Under the pieces are notes generated by a model that saw only the letters and a program-made list of their open reading frames with translations, did not search any database and had not been told where the DNA came from. A stretch of DNA of 64,000 bases from Streptococcus parasuis (GTDB lineage Bacteria > Bacillota > Bacilli > Lactobacillales > Streptococcaceae): positions 1,488,001 through 1,552,000 of the forward strand of contig NZ_AP024276.1 of the NCBI RefSeq assembly GCF_021654455.1, in the 5' to 3' direction. Each line of letters begins with the position of its first letter. The first letter of the stretch is position 1. Positions 22,920 to 43,684 of this stretch are shown here, piece after piece. The translations under genes were made by a program, and so were the position numbers.

Positions 22920-24659
22920 TTACACCCTTGCTTGAATCTCATGCATTTGAGCATAGGTACCACCAAACGCAATCAAATCTTCGTGTTTGCCATGCTCAAT
23001 GATTCGACCTTGATCCAAGACAAGGATTTGATCTGCATTTTGAATGGTAGAGAGTCGGTGCGCAATGATAAAGGTTGTTCGGCCTTCTTTCACCACTTCC
23101 ATGGCATGTTGGATAATTTCTTCTGTCTCCGTATCAATATGAGAAGTTGCTTCATCTAATATCAGAATTTTAGGATCAGAGTAGAGTGTCCGAGCAAAGG
23201 CAATCAGCTGGCGCTCTCCACTTGAAAAGGCCGCTCCCTTCTCAACTACAGGTTCATCAATCCCTTTCTCTAAACGAGATAGCATCGGCCCTGCTCCAAC
23301 TTTTTCCAAGGCTTGCAAAATTCGTTTTTTGTCTGCTGTTTCCTCATTCATGGAAACATTACTTGCAATGGTTCCTGTAAAGAGATAGGGATCTTGTAAA
23401 ACAATCCCCATGTGACTACGCAGGCTTTCACGAGAATAGTCACGAATATTTTTTCCATCAATCAATACGCGACCCGCCTGTGGATCATAGAAACGATAGA
23501 GGAGGTTCATAATCGATGACTTTCCAGAACCCGTATGTCCCACCAAAGCAACTGTTTCACCTTTTTCAGCCCGAATGGAAATATCTCTCAAAACTGGTTT
23601 ATTTTCTTCATAACTAAAATTCACATTTTCAAACACGACTTGACCTTGATCTACTTCCAAATCATGCTCGCTATCAGGTTCCGCCTCTTCTTCTAAAAGA
23701 GCCATTAAACGCTTACCAGTTTCAAAAGAACGAAGCATATTTGGAAATTGCTGAACCAAGGCACCTAATGCGATGAAGACGCCCTCAATATAGTTTACAT
23801 AAACAAAGAGTCTCCCGGCTGTAACTCCAGGATGGCCCTTGAGAAATTGATAACCAACTACTGTCAAAATCCCTGTAATCACTAAATTTTGTAAGAAGCC
23901 ACTCAAATTCCAAGTTGCAAGAGACTGAGCCCATATCATCTTGTTGTCTGCACGACGCATCTTGTCAGCAGTCGCTTCAAACTCTTGCATACTTCTTTCT
24001 TCTTGTCCAAAGAGTTGAATCAAACTAGCACCGTTCATGGTTTCATTTACCTGAGTATTCACATCACTCCTGGCATCATAGAAGTCCTTCATGGGCTTGT
24101 CAGTCATTTTTTTATAAGCAAATTGAATCCCAATATATAGAGGAATCAGCAGCAACATCAGCCAGCCCAAACTACGATTCATGTAGAAAAGAACAGCATA
24201 TGTAAATACCAGTCGAACGATATTGTTAAAGGCATAAACTAAGGTACCATAAAATTGAGTTCGCAGTGTCTCAGTATCATTGACAATTCTAGTTGCAATC
24301 TTCCCTGCTGGTTTATCATCAAAATATGAAATAGGCAACCGCTGCATCACATCATAGGCTTGATTTCTCAGATTCTCTGCAATCCGATTGGCACAATGCA
24401 TGAGCAAGCGCATGGACAGGTAAAAACCAATGGCTCCTAGGACTGTCATCCCCATATATTGAGCTGACTGAGTCAAAAAAACAGTTTCATTAAATGGAAA
24501 ACCCTTGCTCAAATCTGTAATCGGCCCATCGATAGCCTGCTGAATCAACAGAGGAGCCAATCGAACCAGGGTTGAAGCTAGTAAATAGAAAGCTACTGCT
24601 ACAATAAATAGCCATTTGACGCGTTTGATTTGTTTTAATAAAAATCCTAAAATAGTCAT
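22920..24659 (-). CDS. Heterodimeric ABC multidrug exporter, subunit with canonical Walker B
   Basis: A 579-aa half-transporter: six transmembrane helices (about residues 15-310) fused to an ATPase domain. Walker A is GHTGSGKS and Walker B ILILDEATSHID has the catalytic Glu, but the signature reads FSSGERQ instead of LSGGQ. Paired with the upstream gene, whose Walker B ends in Asp, it forms one consensus and one degenerate ATP site, the hallmark of heterodimeric exporters such as LmrCD, BmrCD and PatAB. The genes overlap by one base (TAATG). Drug export is inferred from the family; a leader attenuator supports induction by ribosome-targeting compounds. Confidence 0.88.
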   Translation of the reverse strand: MTILGFLLKQIKRVKWLFIVAVAFYLLASTLVRLAPLLIQQAIDGPITDLSKGFPFNETVFLTQSAQYMGMTVLGAIGFYLSMRLLMHCANRIAENLRNQAYDVMQRLPISYFDDKPAGKIATRIVNDTETLRTQFYGTLVYAFNNIVRLVFTYAVLFYMNRSLGWLMLLLIPLYIGIQFAYKKMTDKPMKDFYDARSDVNTQVNETMNGASLIQLFGQEERSMQEFEATADKMRRADNKMIWAQSLATWNLSGFLQNLVITGILTVVGYQFLKGHPGVTAGRLFVYVNYIEGVFIALGALVQQFPNMLRSFETGKRLMALLEEEAEPDSEHDLEVDQGQVVFENVNFSYEENKPVLRDISIRAEKGETVALVGHTGSGKSSIMNLLYRFYDPQAGRVLIDGKNIRDYSRESLRSHMGIVLQDPYLFTGTIASNVSMNEETADKKRILQALEKVGAGPMLSRLEKGIDEPVVEKGAAFSSGERQLIAFARTLYSDPKILILDEATSHIDTETEEIIQHAMEVVKEGRTTFIIAHRLSTIQNADQILVLDQGRIIEHGKHEDLIAFGGTYAQMHEIQARV

Positions 24660-26386
24660 TACTCTCCTCCTTCCTGGCTTTGTTGTCGCTGGTATTGTTC
24701 ATAATACCAACCTTTTTGGGCAAGCAAATCAGCGGGACGCCCTTCTTCAACGATACGGCCCTCATCCAGAACCAACACCCAATCAGCATGGTTGACAGCA
24801 GATAGACGATGGGTCACGATGACATTAGTTTTGCCTGCACGTTCTTTTTGAATATTTTGGATAATCTGGCGTTCTGTCCGAGCATCCACTGCCGACAAAG
24901 AATCATCTAGGATTAGCAAATCTGGTTTCCGTAAGAATGCACGCGCAATAGAAATCCGTTGCTTTTGACCACCCGAAATAGATACCCCACGCTCACCTAT
25001 CATGGTGTTTAGACCATCACTCATCCGTTTTAAATCTTGATCAAATGCAGCCGTAACAATGGCTTGTTCAATCTCTTCAGAACTACTATCTACTTTGCCG
25101 AGCGCAATATTTTCTCCGACTGATTTAGAAAAGAGAATGTGTTCTTGCGGGACATAACCAATTTTTTCTTCAAGGCTAGCACGTTTATAGTCCAATACTG
25201 TTTGATCATTAATGGTGAAATCACCCTGACCAACAGGATATTGACGCAGGAATTGGCGGACTAAGGTCGTCTTTCCAGAACCTGTTTTTCCGACGATTCC
25301 AACGGTCTGTCCAGCTAGTAGGGTCCAATTAATGTCCTGAAGGCTGGCTCTTTCCGACTGTGGATATTGGAAGCTGTAATCCTTGAAAGCAATACTCGCC
25401 AGCTCTCCTATTTCCTTAGACCCATCCACCTCCAAATCATCACCTGTCTCTATTAGCTCTTGCAATTTTTCGAAAGACGTCTTGCCAGTTTGATAAACAA
25501 GGATAAAATCTGCCAGTGTCCAGAAGGGCTCTAAGAGCGAACTGACATAGAGTTGCAGTGCAATGACTTGTCCGAGTGTTAATTGACCTGTCTTCACGGC
25601 CTGTGCTCCCATTACAAGTACTAGAATCGTAGATAAACCTAAACAGACAGTCGCTAGAGGATTATATAAAGATTGAAGTGAGGTGATACGATCACCACCT
25701 TGTGCTAATTGTTTGGTGCGTGCTTGGAATTGAGCTTTTTGAGTCGCTTTCTTACTATAAGCCCTCGTCACTCGAATCCCTTCAATGACTTCCAAAACTT
25801 CATTATTGAGTTGAGCTACAGCGTCCCTATTCGCGTCAATCGCCTTATCTTGTTTTCTTCCGATAAAAAATATACAAAGCGTCATGAACAGCATCGGAAG
25901 CAAAGCAACCGTAGAAATCTTCCAGTCAATGAAGAACATGGTTGGAATGATAAAAGCTAGCATGCCACCTGCATAGACGACAATCATGAGACCGTAACCG
26001 ACCATCTCCATCAAGCCATCCACATCCGTTGAAAAACGGGTCATTACATCTCCTGAGCGAAATTTCTCATAGAATGGTGTTCGCATAGTGACCAACTTTT
26101 TGAATGCCCGTTGTTGCATATCAAACTTGAAGTTAACGGAAGCCTGAAATAGTTTAAGGTGCCAAATAAATGCCATAGCATAGTTCAGCAAGGTCACGAG
26201 CAACAAGAGCGTCATATCCTGAACTAAAATTGCTTGCGTTAATTCATTTTTGGTCAGTATATCAACCATCCGTTGAATCATTTGCGTCGGTACCAAAAGC
26301 GTGGCATCATAAATAATCAAGGTCACGGCAACCAATAAATAGAGCCACTTATGACGCTTGATATAATCAAAAATTAATCGAAACAT
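24659..26386 (-). CDS. Heterodimeric ABC multidrug exporter, subunit with degenerate Walker B
   Basis: A 575-aa half-transporter starting MFRLIFDYIKRHKWLYLLVA, with six helices and an ATPase domain. Walker A is GKTGSGKTT and the signature ISGGQKQR is canonical, but Walker B reads LLILDDSLSAVD, with Asp in place of the catalytic Glu. It is translated first, with AAAGGAG ahead of the ATG. Its roughly 350-nt leader contains two short open frames and a terminator. Related S. suis (SatAB) and pneumococcal (PatAB) pumps export fluoroquinolones; whether this is that pair I cannot say. Confidence 0.88.
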   Translation of the reverse strand: MFRLIFDYIKRHKWLYLLVAVTLIIYDATLLVPTQMIQRMVDILTKNELTQAILVQDMTLLLLVTLLNYAMAFIWHLKLFQASVNFKFDMQQRAFKKLVTMRTPFYEKFRSGDVMTRFSTDVDGLMEMVGYGLMIVVYAGGMLAFIIPTMFFIDWKISTVALLPMLFMTLCIFFIGRKQDKAIDANRDAVAQLNNEVLEVIEGIRVTRAYSKKATQKAQFQARTKQLAQGGDRITSLQSLYNPLATVCLGLSTILVLVMGAQAVKTGQLTLGQVIALQLYVSSLLEPFWTLADFILVYQTGKTSFEKLQELIETGDDLEVDGSKEIGELASIAFKDYSFQYPQSERASLQDINWTLLAGQTVGIVGKTGSGKTTLVRQFLRQYPVGQGDFTINDQTVLDYKRASLEEKIGYVPQEHILFSKSVGENIALGKVDSSSEEIEQAIVTAAFDQDLKRMSDGLNTMIGERGVSISGGQKQRISIARAFLRKPDLLILDDSLSAVDARTERQIIQNIQKERAGKTNVIVTHRLSAVNHADWVLVLDEGRIVEEGRPADLLAQKGWYYEQYQRQQSQEGGE

Positions 26387-26461: not shown

Positions 26462-26491
26462 CTAAGCGCACAAAAAAGCCCAGGGAAGCAT
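26462..26491 (-). CDS. Second leader peptide (9 aa) within the attenuator hairpin
   Basis: ATG at 26491, peptide MLPWAFLCA, stop TAG at 26462-26464. A strong AGGAGGAG lies four bases upstream. The reading frame covers the 3' half of the terminator hairpin, so ribosomes on it would affect folding. Too short for homology support; called from the ribosome site and its position. Confidence 0.5.
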   Translation of the reverse strand: MLPWAFLCA

Positions 26492-26509
26492 TTTACTCCT
26501 CCTAGGCTT
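26472..26509 (-). terminator. Leader terminator (attenuator) of the ABC exporter operon
   Basis: Minus-strand stem AGCCTAGG...CCTGGGCT followed by TTTTTT, ending 86 bp before the first exporter gene and downstream of the promoter. A terminator inside a 5' leader indicates regulated read-through. Confidence 0.75.
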
Positions 26510-26631
26510 GCTTTAGTCCACAAAAATAGACCCGTTGTTTTTCAAAAATCACTCAATAAGTCCATAAACCTATCTAGCTGAACCACCGTTCAACCTCTAC
26601 TCTTCATTGAGACCACACTCATGAATGATTT

Positions 26632-26706
26632 CTAAAATCTGTTTTCCCGCTTAGAAAGGAGTATATGATAAAAAATAGCTTGTTTGACGACAAGGTTCTT
26701 GTTCAT
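26632..26706 (-). CDS. First leader peptide (24 aa) of the ABC exporter operon
   Basis: ATG at 26706 preceded at 8 bases by AAGGAG (26715-26720), shortly after the promoter. The peptide begins MNKNLVVKQ and ends SKRENRF. Codons 15-18 contain TACTCCTTTC, an exact 10-base complement of the ribosome-binding region GAAAGGAGTA, so its own translation start can be sequestered. Layout resembles the BmrB leader ahead of bmrCD in Bacillus subtilis, in which ribosome stalling lets transcription continue. Function is inferred. Confidence 0.6.
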   Translation of the reverse strand: MNKNLVVKQAIFYHILLSKRENRF

Positions 26707-26737
26707 TTGTTTTACTCCTTTCAGCTTTCTATCCACT

Positions 26738-26765
26738 ATTTTAACACAATAAACATATATGTCAA
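26738..26765 (-). promoter_or_regulatory. Promoter of the ABC exporter operon
   Basis: -35 TTGACA (26760-26765, perfect consensus), 16-nt spacer, -10 TAAAAT (26738-26743) on the minus strand. ACATATATGT overlaps the -35 box as a 10-bp palindrome. Confidence 0.75.
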
Positions 26766-26822: not shown

Positions 26823-27050
26823 AAAATTGTTGGGCAAAATGTCCATATACACTCATTAAGACATACTTATGCTTCATACTTGATTACCAAAGGTGTTGAG
26901 TTGATTTCCATTTCCCAGTTGTTAGGGTATGAGAATTTAAACATCACACTCAAAGTCTACGCTCACCAACTTGAATCATTAAAAGAGAAGAGTAATGAAA
27001 AAATCAAAAAGATATTTGAAAAATTTGGGGCAGATTTGGGGCAGACATAA
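26823..27050 (+). pseudogene. Tyrosine recombinase (integrase) C-terminal remnant
   Basis: An open frame without start codon that reads ...HSLRHTYASYLITKGV...LLGYEN...TLKVYAHQLESL, ending GADLGQT before TAA at 27048-27050. This is the C-terminal catalytic part of a phage/ICE-type tyrosine integrase: Arg-x-x-His pair (RHT) and the tyrosine nucleophile in VYAH. Everything upstream of about 76 codons is missing. It ends directly at the terminator palindrome that IS1182 duplicated and, without the insertion sequence, would lie about 40 bp from the tRNA-Thr 3' end. Confidence 0.8.
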
Positions 27051-27078: not shown

Positions 27079-28628
27079 CAGAATGAAGACAAAGTCGTTA
27101 GAATTATATTTCTAACGGCTTTTTCATATGTAAAGTAGTATAATAGAGATAGGAATACTAGCTAATAAGCAGAGGGAGAATCGCTATGTTACACAAAGAA
27201 AATCCAGACTACAATCGCGGTCAATTTGGTTTCTACAGTTTAGATGACCTTGTTCCTCAAGATCATCTCCTTCGTCAAATAGAGGAAGCTATTGACTTCT
27301 CCTTTATCTATGACTTAGTCGCAGATAGCTATAGCGATGATACAGGGCGTCCTAGTCTTGACCCTATTCTGCTCATTAAAATTCCAATCCTTCAATGCCT
27401 CTTCGGTATTCGCTCCATGCGTCAAACCATTAAGGAAATTGAAGTCAACACTGCCTATCGTTGGTTTCTTGGTCTTCGACTGGATGATAAGGTGCCTCAT
27501 TTCACTACCTACGGAAAGAATTATGTCCGTCGTTTCCAAGATAGACAGGTCATTGAAGGCATTTTCACCCATATCTTAGGTCTCTGTGTCAATGCAGGAT
27601 TCATAGATCCGACAGAAATTTTCATTGACGGTACCCATATCAAAGCTGCGGCGAATAATCGCAAATTCATCAATCGTGAAGTTGAAAAGCAAGCCAAGTT
27701 TATGAGTGAGCAGTTAGAGATTGAAATCAATAGAGATAGAGAAAAGCATGCAAAAAAGCCGCTAGGGCCCGCAAAAGAGGAGGGGCCCGTCGCTAAGAAA
27801 ATTTCTACAACCGACCCAGAAAGTGGTTGGTTTCATAAAGGGGACCATAAGGAAGTATTTGCCTACACAGCTCAGGTGGCTTGTGACAAGTATGGTTGGG
27901 CTCTGGCTTATAGCGTTGAGGCTGGCAATGTCCATGACAGTCAGGCCTTTCCTGCACTCTTCGCCAAGCTCCAGCCCTTTCAACCTAGCTTTCTCATTGC
28001 CGATTCTGGCTATAAGACCCCTAGTATCGCTCACTTCCTTCTGGAACAAGAGATTACTCCTGTTTTTCCTTACACTCGTCCGAAAGGGAAGAAGGGAAAA
28101 CTGCGCTCGAAGGATTTTGTTTACGATGAATACTATGACTGTTATATCTGTCCTGAGAATCAAGTCTTAACCTATCGCACTACAATCAGGGAAGGTTATC
28201 GGGAATATAAGAGTGATCCAGCTATCTGTGCTAGTTGTCCACTTCTATCAATTTGTACAGAAAGCAAGAACAAGCAGAAAGTGGTAACTCGACACATTTG
28301 GAAAGAGGCTTTAGAAACCTGTGAAGAGATTCGGCACAGGAAAGGTATGAAGGAGCTCTACCAGAAGCGCAAAGAAACCATTGAACGCCTCTTTGGGACA
28401 GCCAAAGAGTACCACAATCTTCGTTATACAAGAGAGAAAGGCAAGTCCAAAATGGAAGATAAGGTTGGACTGACTTTGGCGTGTTTAAATCTCAAGAAAT
28501 TGGTAAAAATGAGGGCAGGGAAGCCTTTTTATATTGTACAAATAGTCACGATTCTGGCAAAAAGACTGACTATCAGACCAATAAACAGAAAAAGACAAAC
28601 ATCAGTCGAGATGTTTGTCTTCATTCTG
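27079..28628 (+). mobile_element. IS1182-family insertion sequence, 1550 bp
   Basis: Ends are perfect 15-bp inverted repeats, CAGAATGAAGACAAA and TTTGTCTTCATTCTG. It is flanked by an identical 28-bp sequence that is itself a terminator palindrome, consistent with target duplication on insertion into a hairpin. Near the left end is an internal hairpin (27093-27125) that would block read-through into the transposase. The boundary may shift by three bases because CAG is shared by element and flank. Confidence 0.85.
27093..27125 (+). terminator. Terminator at IS1182 left end
   Basis: AGTCGTTAGAA/TTCTAACGGCT stem followed by TTTT, inside the element and upstream of the transposase; shields the transposase from outside transcription. 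Confidence 0.6.
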
Positions 28629-28730
28629 CAAAAACCCTTGTGTTTCAAGGGTTTTTCAGGTTATTTTATGCTAGTTGCCGGGATTGAACCGGCGACCTCA
28701 TCCTTACCATGGATGCGCTCTACCGACTGA
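27186..28730 (+). CDS. IS1182-family transposase (frame runs out of the element)
   Basis: A 514-aa DDE transposase with a preceding GAGGGAG site. N-terminal DUF772-like domain (about residues 18-95), DDE residues in IFIDGTHIKAAANN, LIADSGYKT and KETIERLFGTAKEYHNLRYTR, and a cysteine-rich insert (CPENQ...CASCPLLSIC). The element has no stop codon in this frame: it crosses the right inverted repeat and the 28-bp repeat and ends antisense to tRNA-Thr. The last 35 or so residues (from PLCFKG on) are thus not transposase sequence. Active-site residues are intact, so it may still be functional. Confidence 0.85.
   Translation: MLHKENPDYNRGQFGFYSLDDLVPQDHLLRQIEEAIDFSFIYDLVADSYSDDTGRPSLDPILLIKIPILQCLFGIRSMRQTIKEIEVNTAYRWFLGLRLDDKVPHFTTYGKNYVRRFQDRQVIEGIFTHILGLCVNAGFIDPTEIFIDGTHIKAAANNRKFINREVEKQAKFMSEQLEIEINRDREKHAKKPLGPAKEEGPVAKKISTTDPESGWFHKGDHKEVFAYTAQVACDKYGWALAYSVEAGNVHDSQAFPALFAKLQPFQPSFLIADSGYKTPSIAHFLLEQEITPVFPYTRPKGKKGKLRSKDFVYDEYYDCYICPENQVLTYRTTIREGYREYKSDPAICASCPLLSICTESKNKQKVVTRHIWKEALETCEEIRHRKGMKELYQKRKETIERLFGTAKEYHNLRYTREKGKSKMEDKVGLTLACLNLKKLVKMRAGKPFYIVQIVTILAKRLTIRPINRKRQTSVEMFVFILQKPLCFKGFSGYFMLVAGIEPATSSLPWMRSTD
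28629..28656 (+). repeat. Right copy of 28-bp direct repeat flanking IS1182
   Basis: Identical to 27051-27078. It also forms a terminator hairpin, here lying 12 bp beyond the tRNA-Thr 3' end, and would serve that gene on the minus strand. Confidence 0.85.
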
Positions 28731-28741
28731 GCTAAACCAGC
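28669..28741 (-). tRNA. tRNA-Thr (anticodon GGT)
   Basis: A 73-nt cloverleaf without encoded CCA. Acceptor arms GCTGGTT/AACTAGC with one G-U pair and discriminator A, D arm GCTC/GAGC, anticodon arm CATCC-ATGGTAA-GGATG, T arm GCCGG-TTCAATC-CCGGC. The central GGT reads ACC threonine codons. The 3' end faces the insertion sequence and integrase relic, the usual orientation of an attachment site in a tRNA gene. Confidence 0.95.
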
Positions 28742-42268: not shown

Positions 42269-43684
42269 GGCTCTATAATTTCTGTAGTGGGTAAAACCAC
42301 CGTGGAGATTATGGAGCCTTTTTGAGTATAGAAAAAAAGTCCCATATGACCTATAATGAAAAGTGCTCAAACTATCATTTTAGAAAGACTCATATGGAAC
42401 AACTAAATCTTATCACAAATTTTCTCAGAATTAAAGACAAAAATATCACTATCACTGATGAATATGATATGGGAACTCACTTAGAACTCCACGGTTACTT
42501 GGATTACATGGCTCCTAAATGCCCAAAATGCAAGGGACAAATGGCTAAGTACGACTACCAGAAAGCATCAAAAATTCCCTACCTAGAAACCGCTGGTTAT
42601 CCACTCCTTATCCGCCTTAAAAAGCGTCGTTTCAAGTGTAAAGAATGTGGGAAAATGGCGGTCGCTGAAACTCCTCTTGTTAAGAAAAACCATCAAATAT
42701 CTGTCGCTGTTAACCAGAAAATTGCCCAATTACTCATCGAAAATCAAGCAATGACACATATCGCACACAGGCTAGCTATCTCAACATCATCAGTTATGAG
42801 AAAGCTCAATGAGTTCAAGTTTGAAACGGATTGGAATACCCTACCTGAGGTGATGAGTTGGGACGAGTATGCCTTCAAGAAGGGGAAAATGAGCTTCATC
42901 GCTCAAGATTTCAACTCCCTAAATGTCATCGCCATTCTCGACGGAAGAACTCAAGCAACCATCCGAAACCACTTTCTACGCTATCCTAGAAAGGTTAGAA
43001 ATCAGGTCAAAGTGATTACCATGGATATGTTTAGTCCCTATTATCAACTTGCTAAACAGCTTTTTCCGAATGCAAAAATCGTACTAGACCGCTTTCATAT
43101 TGTTCAACACCTTAGCCGGGCTATGAACCGTGTCCGTATTCAAATTATGAATCAATTCGACAGAACATCGCAGGAATACCGAGTCTTGAAACGCTACTGG
43201 AAATTGATACAACAAGATAGCCGTAAACTCAGCGATAAACGATTTTATCGCCCTATGTTTCGAATGCATTTGACTAACAAGGAAATCCTAGAAAAACTCC
43301 TGTCTTTCTCCAAGGAACTACGACAGCACTATGAACTCTATCAATTGCTCTTATTCCATTTCCAAGAGAAGAACTCAGACCATTTCTTTGACCTCATCGA
43401 ACAGGAAGTAGCCACTGTTAATCTTATTTTTCAGACGGTATTTAAGACATTTCTAAAGGATAAAGACAAGGTTTTAAACGCCATGGAATTGCCTTATTCC
43501 AACGCCAAACTGGAAGCTACCAATAATCTCATCAAAGTCATTAAAAGAAATGCCTTTGGTTTCAGGAACTTTGAAAATTTTAAAAAACGGATTTTGATTG
43601 CTTTGAACATAAAGAAAGAGAGAACGAAGTTCGTCCTCTCTAGGTGTTAGCTTTTCATCTACCCACTACAGTTGACAAAGAGCC
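42269..43684 (+). mobile_element. ISL3-family insertion sequence, 1416 bp
   Basis: Imperfect terminal inverted repeats of about 25 bp: left GGCTCTATAATTTCTGTAGT continues GGGTA, right (reverse complement) GGCTCTTTGTCAACTGTAGT continues GGGTA. Flanked by an exact 8-bp direct repeat TTTCTTAT (42261-42268 and 43685-43692), the usual ISL3 duplication. It resembles IS1167-type elements of streptococci. Confidence 0.95.
42394..43650 (+). CDS. ISL3-family transposase
   Basis: A 418-aa DDE transposase: N-terminal zinc-finger pairs (CPKC and CKEC around residues 39-90), helix-turn-helix (HIAHRLAISTSSVMRKL), then catalytic residues in MSWDEYAFKKG, VITMDMFSPYY/IVLDRFHIVQHL and the Glu of SNAKLEATNNLIK. 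The ATG at 42394 (MEQLNLITNF) gives the usual ISL3 length; a frame to 42322 adds 24 residues without support. The frame is complete, so the element may be active. Confidence 0.93.
   Translation: MEQLNLITNFLRIKDKNITITDEYDMGTHLELHGYLDYMAPKCPKCKGQMAKYDYQKASKIPYLETAGYPLLIRLKKRRFKCKECGKMAVAETPLVKKNHQISVAVNQKIAQLLIENQAMTHIAHRLAISTSSVMRKLNEFKFETDWNTLPEVMSWDEYAFKKGKMSFIAQDFNSLNVIAILDGRTQATIRNHFLRYPRKVRNQVKVITMDMFSPYYQLAKQLFPNAKIVLDRFHIVQHLSRAMNRVRIQIMNQFDRTSQEYRVLKRYWKLIQQDSRKLSDKRFYRPMFRMHLTNKEILEKLLSFSKELRQHYELYQLLLFHFQEKNSDHFFDLIEQEVATVNLIFQTVFKTFLKDKDKVLNAMELPYSNAKLEATNNLIKVIKRNAFGFRNFENFKKRILIALNIKKERTKFVLSRC

What the first reader, a model, noticed from the sequence alone, without database searches (positions are those of the whole stretch)
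26462..26765. Double leader-peptide attenuator ahead of a heterodimeric ABC drug exporter
A consensus promoter (TTGACA-16-TAAAAT) drives a roughly 350-nt leader. It holds a 24-codon frame with AAGGAG at ideal spacing, a 10-base segment within that frame exactly complementary to its own ribosome site, a second 9-codon frame (MLPWAFLCA) with AGGAGGAG, and an intrinsic terminator that overlaps the second frame. This is what is expected for ribosome-mediated transcription attenuation, known for bmrB-bmrCD of Bacillus subtilis. Two nested leaders acting on one terminator would be a less common design. The order of elements is seen; the mechanism is inferred.
Basis: partly seen in the sequence, partly recalled or inferred. 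Interest (0 to 1): 0.8.

Follow-up and report, generated by a model that had tools for sequence, protein, structure and literature searches.

The report
Ribosome-sensing switch before tetracycline-type exporter
A short RNA leader in front of a bacterial drug-export pump appears to sense a ribosome stuck at the start of a tiny reading frame and then let the pump genes be transcribed; the same layout, with very different sequences, sits before related pumps in about a hundred streptococcal genomes.

Summary
On the minus strand, promoter, SD, 24-codon ORF1, a 10-nt stretch in ORF1 complementary to its own SD, intrinsic terminator and ABC exporter pair lie as described. The SD/ORF/anti-SD order recurs in 98 of 100 Streptococcus orthologue loci fetched (finder control 16 of 500 shuffles) and, by script or eye, in 7 of 10 loci outside the genus, with 69 peptides among 100 rows. 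The terminator's 5' side usually carries a near-copy of the SD. This gives a trp-like switch: SD:anti-SD (off), anti-SD:SD-mimic (antiterminator), terminator. Folding predicts the antiterminator when a ribosome sits on the start codon in 77 of 78 loci, and anti-SDs fit their own terminators better than swapped ones. ORF2 (MLPWAFLCA) is in 8 of 100 loci and starts too close to the U-run to act on it, so the 'double leader' is not supported. The pump groups with TrexAB/TetAB(46), so tetracyclines are the likeliest inducers (inferred). No expression data were available. Verdict: a new, widespread variant of ribosome-mediated transcription attenuation, absent from Rfam.

The parts
26738..26765 (-). 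sigma-70-type promoter TTGACA-16-TAAAAT with TG before the -10
   Evidence: promoter-like sites of >=10/12 in 77 of 100 leaders against 4 of 100 shuffled, TG before the -10 in 89 of 100
26713..26722 (-). region 1: Shine-Dalgarno of ORF1, GAAAGGAGTA
26632..26706 (-). ORF1, 24-codon leader MNKNLVVKQAIFYHILLSKRENRF plus stop
   Evidence: pN/pS 0.37 outside the anti-SD over 132 related pairs
26654..26663 (-). region 2: anti-SD TACTCCTTTC inside ORF1
26515..26532 (-). small hairpin GGTCTATTTTTGTGGACT between ORF1 and terminator, conserved in the S. suis-type alignment
   Evidence: 24 of 25 sequences keep the outer G-C and T-A pairs
26494..26502 (-). region 3: SD-mimic GGAGGAGTA in the terminator 5' arm and loop, complementary to region 2
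26472..26509 (-). intrinsic terminator (3:4), stem AAGCCTAGG/CCTGGGCTT and T6
26462..26491 (-). ORF2 MLPWAFLCA overlapping the terminator; judged incidental
   Evidence: this peptide or its one-residue variant in 8 of 100 loci
24659..26386 (-). ABC exporter half-transporter A (575 aa), TrexA/TetA(46)/BmrC-like
22920..24659 (-). ABC exporter half-transporter B (579 aa), TetB(46)-like

Best explanation
A ribosome-mediated transcription attenuator in which the leader ORF's own Shine-Dalgarno is switch segment 1. With no ribosome, SD pairs with the anti-SD inside ORF1 (1:2) and the terminator (3:4) forms: off. With normal translation, ribosomes run over the anti-SD to a stop codon a few codons beyond it, so 2:3 is hindered and termination follows: off. 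When a drug holds the ribosome at or near the start codon, the SD is covered and the anti-SD is free; it pairs with the SD-mimic in the terminator's 5' side (2:3), the terminator is pre-empted and the exporter is transcribed: on. Because the peptides differ almost freely between clades, the sensor should report slow initiation or early elongation in general, not arrest by one drug-specific peptide; tetracyclines, the substrates of the related pump TrexAB, are the likeliest inducers. Shown by sequence: parts, conservation, pairing potential, coding constraint. Inferred: transcription start, termination, switching and inducer.
For: 98 of 100 fetched Streptococcus orthologue loci have SD, ATG ORF and anti-SD in order (for two of the 98, G014 and G279, the leader lies displaced or on another contig). 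The same finder, at its threshold of 6 pairs, succeeds on 100 of 100 rows and on 16 of 500 dinucleotide shuffles. 69 distinct peptides among 100 rows. The anti-SD is in one reading frame in 94 of 100 rows although its distance from the ATG takes seven values there, and in other frames in 6 rows, where the complement is kept; CTCC lies 24 or 27 nt before the end of the stop codon in 73 of 100 rows. The pair next to GGAG is A-T or T-A: 49 of 79 Watson-Crick against a shuffled mean of 31.6, maximum 46 of 500. Own 2:3 duplex -10.73 kcal/mol against -9.53 (sd 0.19, best of 1000 permutations -10.08) for swapped partners, 66 distinct pairs. In the window, start-codon occupancy moves 2:3 from 1.8 to 9.6 expected pairs before the terminator's 3' arm is made. 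77 of 78 loci reach >=4 pairs when start-masked, 31 when naked, 19 with the stop codon masked; mean 9.6 against 5.6 with shuffled arms, higher in 78 of 78. ORF1 pN/pS 0.37. Strict motif in 111 of 284 genus genomes, 4 hits of the reversed-pattern control. TrexAB's published upstream primer end matches L162, which has the leader.
Against: No transcription, translation or induction data were available. Once the terminator is complete, equilibrium folding prefers 3:4 in every state in the window, so antitermination must be kinetic; kinetics were not modelled. In the mitis-type group (25 of 100 rows, peptides with LLQSQLSS) 1:2 is only six pairs, and 2:3 is predicted even naked and with the stop codon masked, so their off state is not explained. 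The 2:3 signal is moderate: other loci's arms pair better than the own arm in 32% of cases on average, mean z against shuffled arms is -1.33, and 6 of 66 are no better than the shuffle mean. In the S. suis-type alignment only the six core 2:3 pairs are broadly kept. Outer 1:2 positions mostly show no excess pairing. L118 reaches only 3.8 pairs. My terminator finder found none in L175, where I read one by eye. Two of 100 fetched loci lack a clear leader (G140, G021). Relatedness of sequences inflates all covariation counts.
Confidence: 0.78

Rival explanations
1. Drug-specific stalling peptide (ErmC-leader kind): the nascent peptide and a given drug arrest the ribosome at a defined codon, and that arrest frees the antiterminator.
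For: ORF1 is under coding constraint within clades, pN/pS 0.37; most leaders start MN and many end with LLS plus a few residues.
Against: 69 distinct peptides among 100 rows with freely varying middles; LLS is explained by the anti-SD nucleotides CTC CTT TCT, and the complement is kept where it sits in another frame (6 of 100 rows).
Confidence: 0.12
2. Leader-peptide-independent attenuator, as proposed for S. pneumoniae patAB: a terminator whose strength sets expression, with ORF1 incidental.
For: patAB has a terminator-based attenuator shown with GFP reporters (passages); a terminator is found in 78 of 79 distinct loci here.
Against: Conserved ATG, SD, reading frame and stop position, and the synonymous-substitution bias of ORF1.
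Confidence: 0.06
3. Double-leader design of the first reader: ORF1 and ORF2 both act on the one terminator.
For: ORF2 has AGGAGGAG and an ATG at workable spacing in the window; seven close relatives have the frame too.
Against: MLPWAFL[C/R]A in 8 of 100 loci only; 11 others have unrelated ATG frames there and 81 have none by this test; its ATG ends 12 nt before the T-run and lies within the terminator hairpin.
Confidence: 0.03
4. The terminated ~260-nt transcript is mainly a trans-acting small RNA, and read-through is constitutive.
For: A strong terminator would release a discrete RNA.
Against: The element stays in front of the exporter in 98 of 100 loci (two of them displaced) while its middle ~100 nt is absent in several S. 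suis-type lineages, which fits cis action.
Confidence: 0.03

Closest known systems
bmrB leader of bmrCD, Bacillus subtilis (PMC4191407, passages read)
   Same: Leader ORF whose translation is needed for drug-induced read-through; terminator, antiterminator and anti-antiterminator; target is an ABC exporter pair. BmrC/YheI is the best sequence match of pump A among solved structures.
   Different: bmrB is a 53-residue frame holding the terminator itself, and 'Shine-Dalgarno' does not occur in that paper's text. 35 of 40 BmrC-like upstreams from the class sample (39 outside the order, 1 inside) gave no self-complementary leader of 8 nt or more by my scan. bmrB's own sequence was not compared.
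vmlR leader, B. subtilis (PMC9226507, passages read)
   Same: Anti-antiterminator / antiterminator / terminator logic; initiation of a tiny ORF is essential.
   Different: The tripeptide ORF's SD is described as single-stranded before SL-1, not as a pairing arm; target is an ABC-F protein, not an exporter.
patAB attenuator, S. pneumoniae (PMC4319486, passages read)
   Same: Streptococcal ABC exporter pair behind a terminator-based attenuator.
   Different: No leader ORF is described in the passages read; the upstream sequence printed there does not resemble this leader by eye. The pumps themselves were not compared here.
TrexAB, S. dysgalactiae (PMC12256430, abstract, passages and Discussion read); TetAB(46)
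   Same: Same pump family; the locus L162, whose sequence before the pump ATG matches the published trexAB primer, carries this leader.
   Different: 'Leader', 'promoter' and 'terminator' do not occur in that paper's main text. The window's subunits score 848 and 781 bits on NCBIfam's Tet(46) models, below the 1250 cut-off.
trp-type attenuators (recalled)
   Same: Three overlapping hairpins with ribosome position as the signal.
   Different: No run of amino-acid control codons seen; segment 1 is the leader's SD and segment 3 imitates it.

Membership tests
Ribosome-mediated transcription attenuation | Short ORF with ribosome-binding site before an intrinsic terminator upstream of the regulated gene | tested here: met
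Ribosome-mediated transcription attenuation | Mutually exclusive antiterminator and terminator whose choice depends on ribosome position | tested here: inconclusive
   Predicted before the terminator's 3' arm is made; equilibrium folding of the complete leader prefers the terminator in every state
Ribosome-mediated transcription attenuation | Leader ORF is translated | tested here: inconclusive
   Indirect: frame conservation and pN/pS 0.37; no ribosome profiling
Ribosome-mediated transcription attenuation | Drug-induced read-through | not testable with these tools
   Needs RNA data
bmrB-type leader | Terminator lies inside the leader ORF | tested here: not met
   ORF1 ends 122 nt before the terminator; bmrB holds it within the frame
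Rfam families (release 15) | Match at gathering score | tested here: not met
   No match in the leader; best sub-threshold E-value 2.2
TetAB(46) | NCBIfam curated cut-off of 1250 bits for both subunits | tested here: not met
   848.1 and 780.7 bits, the best-scoring family for each
Two-subunit ABC exporters of the TrexAB/TetAB(46)/BmrCD group | Two adjacent half-transporters, each ABC_membrane plus ABC_tran | tested here: met
Tetracycline exporter | Confers tetracycline resistance | not testable with these tools
   Shown for TrexAB; the G070 orthologue identified as TrexA by the primer match is 60% identical to the window's protein; inferred here

The most novel reading that the evidence does not exclude
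A widespread, peptide-independent class of 'SD-mimic' attenuators: the leader ORF's own Shine-Dalgarno and a near-copy inside the terminator compete for one anti-SD in the ORF, so the RNA reads whether a ribosome is parked on the start region. It guards TrexAB/TetAB(46)-type exporters across Streptococcus and other Lactobacillales and may recur in other Bacilli (f17 loci L292 and L295 with 10- and 12-nt SD:anti-SD).
Probability: 0.55. Interest if true: 0.68.

Novelty: new variant of a known kind. Interest (0 to 1): 0.58.

Why it matters
It gives a concrete, testable account of how an intrinsic tetracycline-exporter family could be switched on by the drugs it removes, without any regulator protein. 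The tetracycline MICs of trexAB-positive isolates straddle the clinical breakpoint (PMC12256430, Discussion read); if this leader makes expression inducible, that could contribute to variable readings (inference). The SD-mimic logic is simple enough to search for in other genomes and is not in Rfam.

Tried and rejected
Rfam at gathering and permissive thresholds: nothing in the leader. Class-wide looser pattern search: 257 of 398 genomes match and the listed hits look mostly like starts of ordinary genes, so I drew nothing from it. The order-wide strict pattern (54 of 395 genomes) mixes true leaders with chance hits; I used only loci whose neighbour was checked. Of the 30 loci cut (L179-L208), 23 hold the pump gene near the motif and 7 do not (L181, L182, L190, L191, L195, L197, L206). 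BmrC-like genes across the class: 5 of 40 upstreams gave an 8-nt or longer self-complementary leader ORF against 0 of 200 shuffles; only L292 and L295 look convincing to me. My first element finder asked for 7 nt and missed 6-nt pairings, and my second picked a wrong frame in L175; one search replaced both.

Rows dropped before the counts: L177 (no leader seen), L178 (doubtful candidate at -644) and nine loci outside the genus (L053-L056, L062-L065, L069). Of the ten loci outside the genus put through, five gave a leader by script (L051, L054, L055, L062, L065), two more by eye (L053, L056), and three gave none (L063, L064, L069). L057-L061, L066-L068 and L070-L078 were not examined. Orthologue matches not fetched: G006 (starts at a contig end), G232 and G015 (partial); G166 was seen as L052. 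One distinct locus (L175) dropped out because my finder saw no terminator there.

Literature searches behind the statement that I found no description of this leader; papers were read as passages, with one outline and one Discussion section. Supplements were not available: the S. agalactiae RNA-seq paper PMC4448216 counts 11 attenuating leaders outside Rfam, and this one could be among those I could not see.

Full report
What is there. On the minus strand of the window a promoter (TTGACA-16-TAAAAT, TG before the -10) starts a leader of about 345 nt before an ABC exporter pair (575 and 579 aa). The leader holds ORF1 (26706-26632), its SD GAAAGGAGTA (26722-26713), a perfect 10-nt complement of that SD inside ORF1 (26663-26654), and an intrinsic terminator (26509-26472, -19.7 kcal/mol). 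A 10-nt complement arose in 48 of 20,000 dinucleotide shuffles of ORF1. The window lies in a 2.2-Mb single-contig genome; the pump's closest relatives in the named collection are Streptococcus suis records.

The pump. NCBIfam's best models are Tet(46) subunits A and B (848 and 781 bits, below the 1250-bit cut-off). The best solved structure by sequence is BmrC/YheI (437 bits). Both halves have ABC_membrane and ABC_tran domains. The A protein has an orthologue (E <= 1e-150) in 104 of 284 genomes of the genus. TrexAB of S. dysgalactiae is 55 and 59% identical to TetAB(46), has homologues at 60-75% in species that include S. suis, and its removal lowered tetracycline MIC 16- to 32-fold and tigecycline MIC 4-fold (PMC12256430, abstract and passages). 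Its published upstream primer ends exactly as locus L162 (genome G070) does before the pump ATG, and L162 carries the leader MNNSTKRMNFLENTLLSSRKS.

Conservation. I fetched 850 bp (386 or 800 bp for two) around the start of 100 of the 104 orthologues. 98 of those 100 carry the element; L177 lacks it and L178 is doubtful. With L051 (Aerococcaceae) and L052 (S. ovuberis) this makes the 100 rows, with 69 distinct peptides. The same finder succeeds on 16 of 500 shuffled upstreams at its threshold of 6 pairs, and on 8 of 500 at 8 pairs against 74 of 100 real ones. The cores GGAG and CTCC are nearly invariant, while peptides differ almost freely. In 94 rows CTCC is in the same reading frame although its distance from the ATG takes seven values (36 to 51 nt, and 81); in 6 rows it is in another frame and still complementary. 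CTCC lies 24 or 27 nt before the end of the stop codon in 73 of 100 rows. Promoter-like sites of at least 10/12 are found in 77 of 100 leaders against 4 of 100 shuffled ones, and TG precedes the -10 in 89. The strict motif is in 111 of 284 genus genomes, with 4 hits of the reversed-pattern control; of 30 loci cut from those hits, 23 hold the pump gene near the motif.

Beyond the genus, seven of ten loci show SD, short ORF with anti-SD and a terminator, with unrelated peptides: L051, L054, L055, L062, L065 by script, L053 and L056 by eye; L063, L064 and L069 do not. L065 has AAAGGGG facing CCCTTTC, a compensated core. Three more (L210, L211, L215; pump A only 39-40% identical) were found by the motif itself, so they show reach and not frequency.

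Pairing evidence. Among 79 distinct SD+ORF sequences the pair next to GGAG is Watson-Crick in 49 (30 A-T, 19 T-A) against 31.6 by shuffling (maximum 46 of 500); one outer position also exceeds shuffles (22 against 10.5) and the others do not. In the S. suis-type alignment (25 distinct sequences) the terminator stem changes sequence while mostly keeping pairs. The third element is the key addition: the terminator's 5' arm or loop usually carries GGAG, AGGAAGGA or TAGAAAGGA, an imitation of the SD. Over 66 distinct pairs the anti-SD pairs with its own terminator arm at -10.73 kcal/mol, against -8.06 for dinucleotide-shuffled arms (better than the shuffle mean in 60 of 66) and -9.53 (sd 0.19; best of 1000 permutations -10.08) for arms of other loci; only 20 of 1905 other windows of the same ORFs pair as well. 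The effect is moderate: for an average locus 32% of foreign arms pair better than its own, and relatedness inflates such counts, so I treat them as support, not proof.

Switching. In the window, before the terminator's 3' arm exists, naked RNA forms 1:2 (8.1 expected pairs), a ribosome on the start codon gives 2:3 (9.6), and a ribosome on the stop codon lets 1:2 re-form and gives no 2:3. With the P site on codons 1-3 2:3 forms fully, on codons 4-5 partly, on codon 11 weakly (3.1), on codons 14-21 not at all. Over 78 distinct loci 2:3 reaches at least 4 pairs in 77 with the start masked, 31 naked and 19 with the stop masked; with the start masked the mean is 9.6 against 5.6 for shuffled arms, higher in 78 of 78. 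Against this: with the terminator complete, equilibrium folding prefers it in every state, so the antiterminator must win in time; and in the 25 mitis-type rows (peptides with LLQSQLSS) 1:2 is only six pairs and 2:3 is predicted without any ribosome and at the stop codon, which leaves their off state unexplained.

Translation of ORF1. Outside the anti-SD, 132 related pairs (not independent) give pN/pS 0.37, and third codon positions differ twice as often as the others. The peptide's freedom between clades argues for a sensor of slow initiation or early elongation in general and against a drug-specific arrest peptide.

ORF2. MLPWAFL[C/R]A is in 8 of 100 rows, all close S. suis-type relatives; 11 further rows have unrelated ATG frames at that place and 81 have none. 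Its ATG ends 12 nt before the T-run, so RNA polymerase, which covers roughly the last 14 nt of RNA (recalled), reaches the decision before a ribosome can bind. The double-leader idea is therefore not supported.

Known systems. bmrB, vmlR and patAB are the nearest described attenuators; premature terminators before ABC genes were surveyed in PMC2965389, including a lactobacillar multidrug exporter (passages). None of the passages read describes the leader's own SD as a switch arm with a mimic in the terminator. My ten full-text searches found no account of this leader; papers outside the open library and all supplements were out of reach, and PMC4448216 counts 11 attenuating leaders outside Rfam in S. 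agalactiae that I could not list. I rate it a new variant of a known kind.

Noticed in passing
L264, L266, L269, L270, L277 (upstream of BmrC-like genes outside Lactobacillales): Another recurrent small ORF of roughly 20 codons ending near KESLE-G-stop (or a close variant) sits directly before the pump gene (read by eye).
   Followed up: no
L292 and L295: Two genomes of one family outside the order show SD:anti-SD complements of 10 and 12 nt in leader ORFs of BmrC-like pumps, in a different sequence context.
   Followed up: partly
window 26832-27050 (+) and 27186-28730 (+): C-terminal remnant of a tyrosine integrase (PF00589, E 2.8e-9) and a DDE transposase gene lie between the leader and a tRNA (28669-28741); in relatives such as L042 a tRNA-like 3' end stands close before the leader.
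   Followed up: partly
L037 2279-2432: A repeat-like insert of about 150 bp with inverted ends sits between terminator and pump gene in close relatives.
   Followed up: no
G014 (L003, L087): The leader is present but the pump gene starts about 670 bp after the matched leader block, which points to an insertion between them.
   Followed up: no
L181, L182, L191, L206, L229-L232: A different recurring stretch that fits the strict motif (AAAGGAG...GGCTCCTTTC) in mitis-type genomes, with no pump gene in the 3-kb locus.
   Followed up: no
window 42269-42379 (-): Streptococcus small RNA Srn266 (RF02822, 117.9 bits).
   Followed up: no
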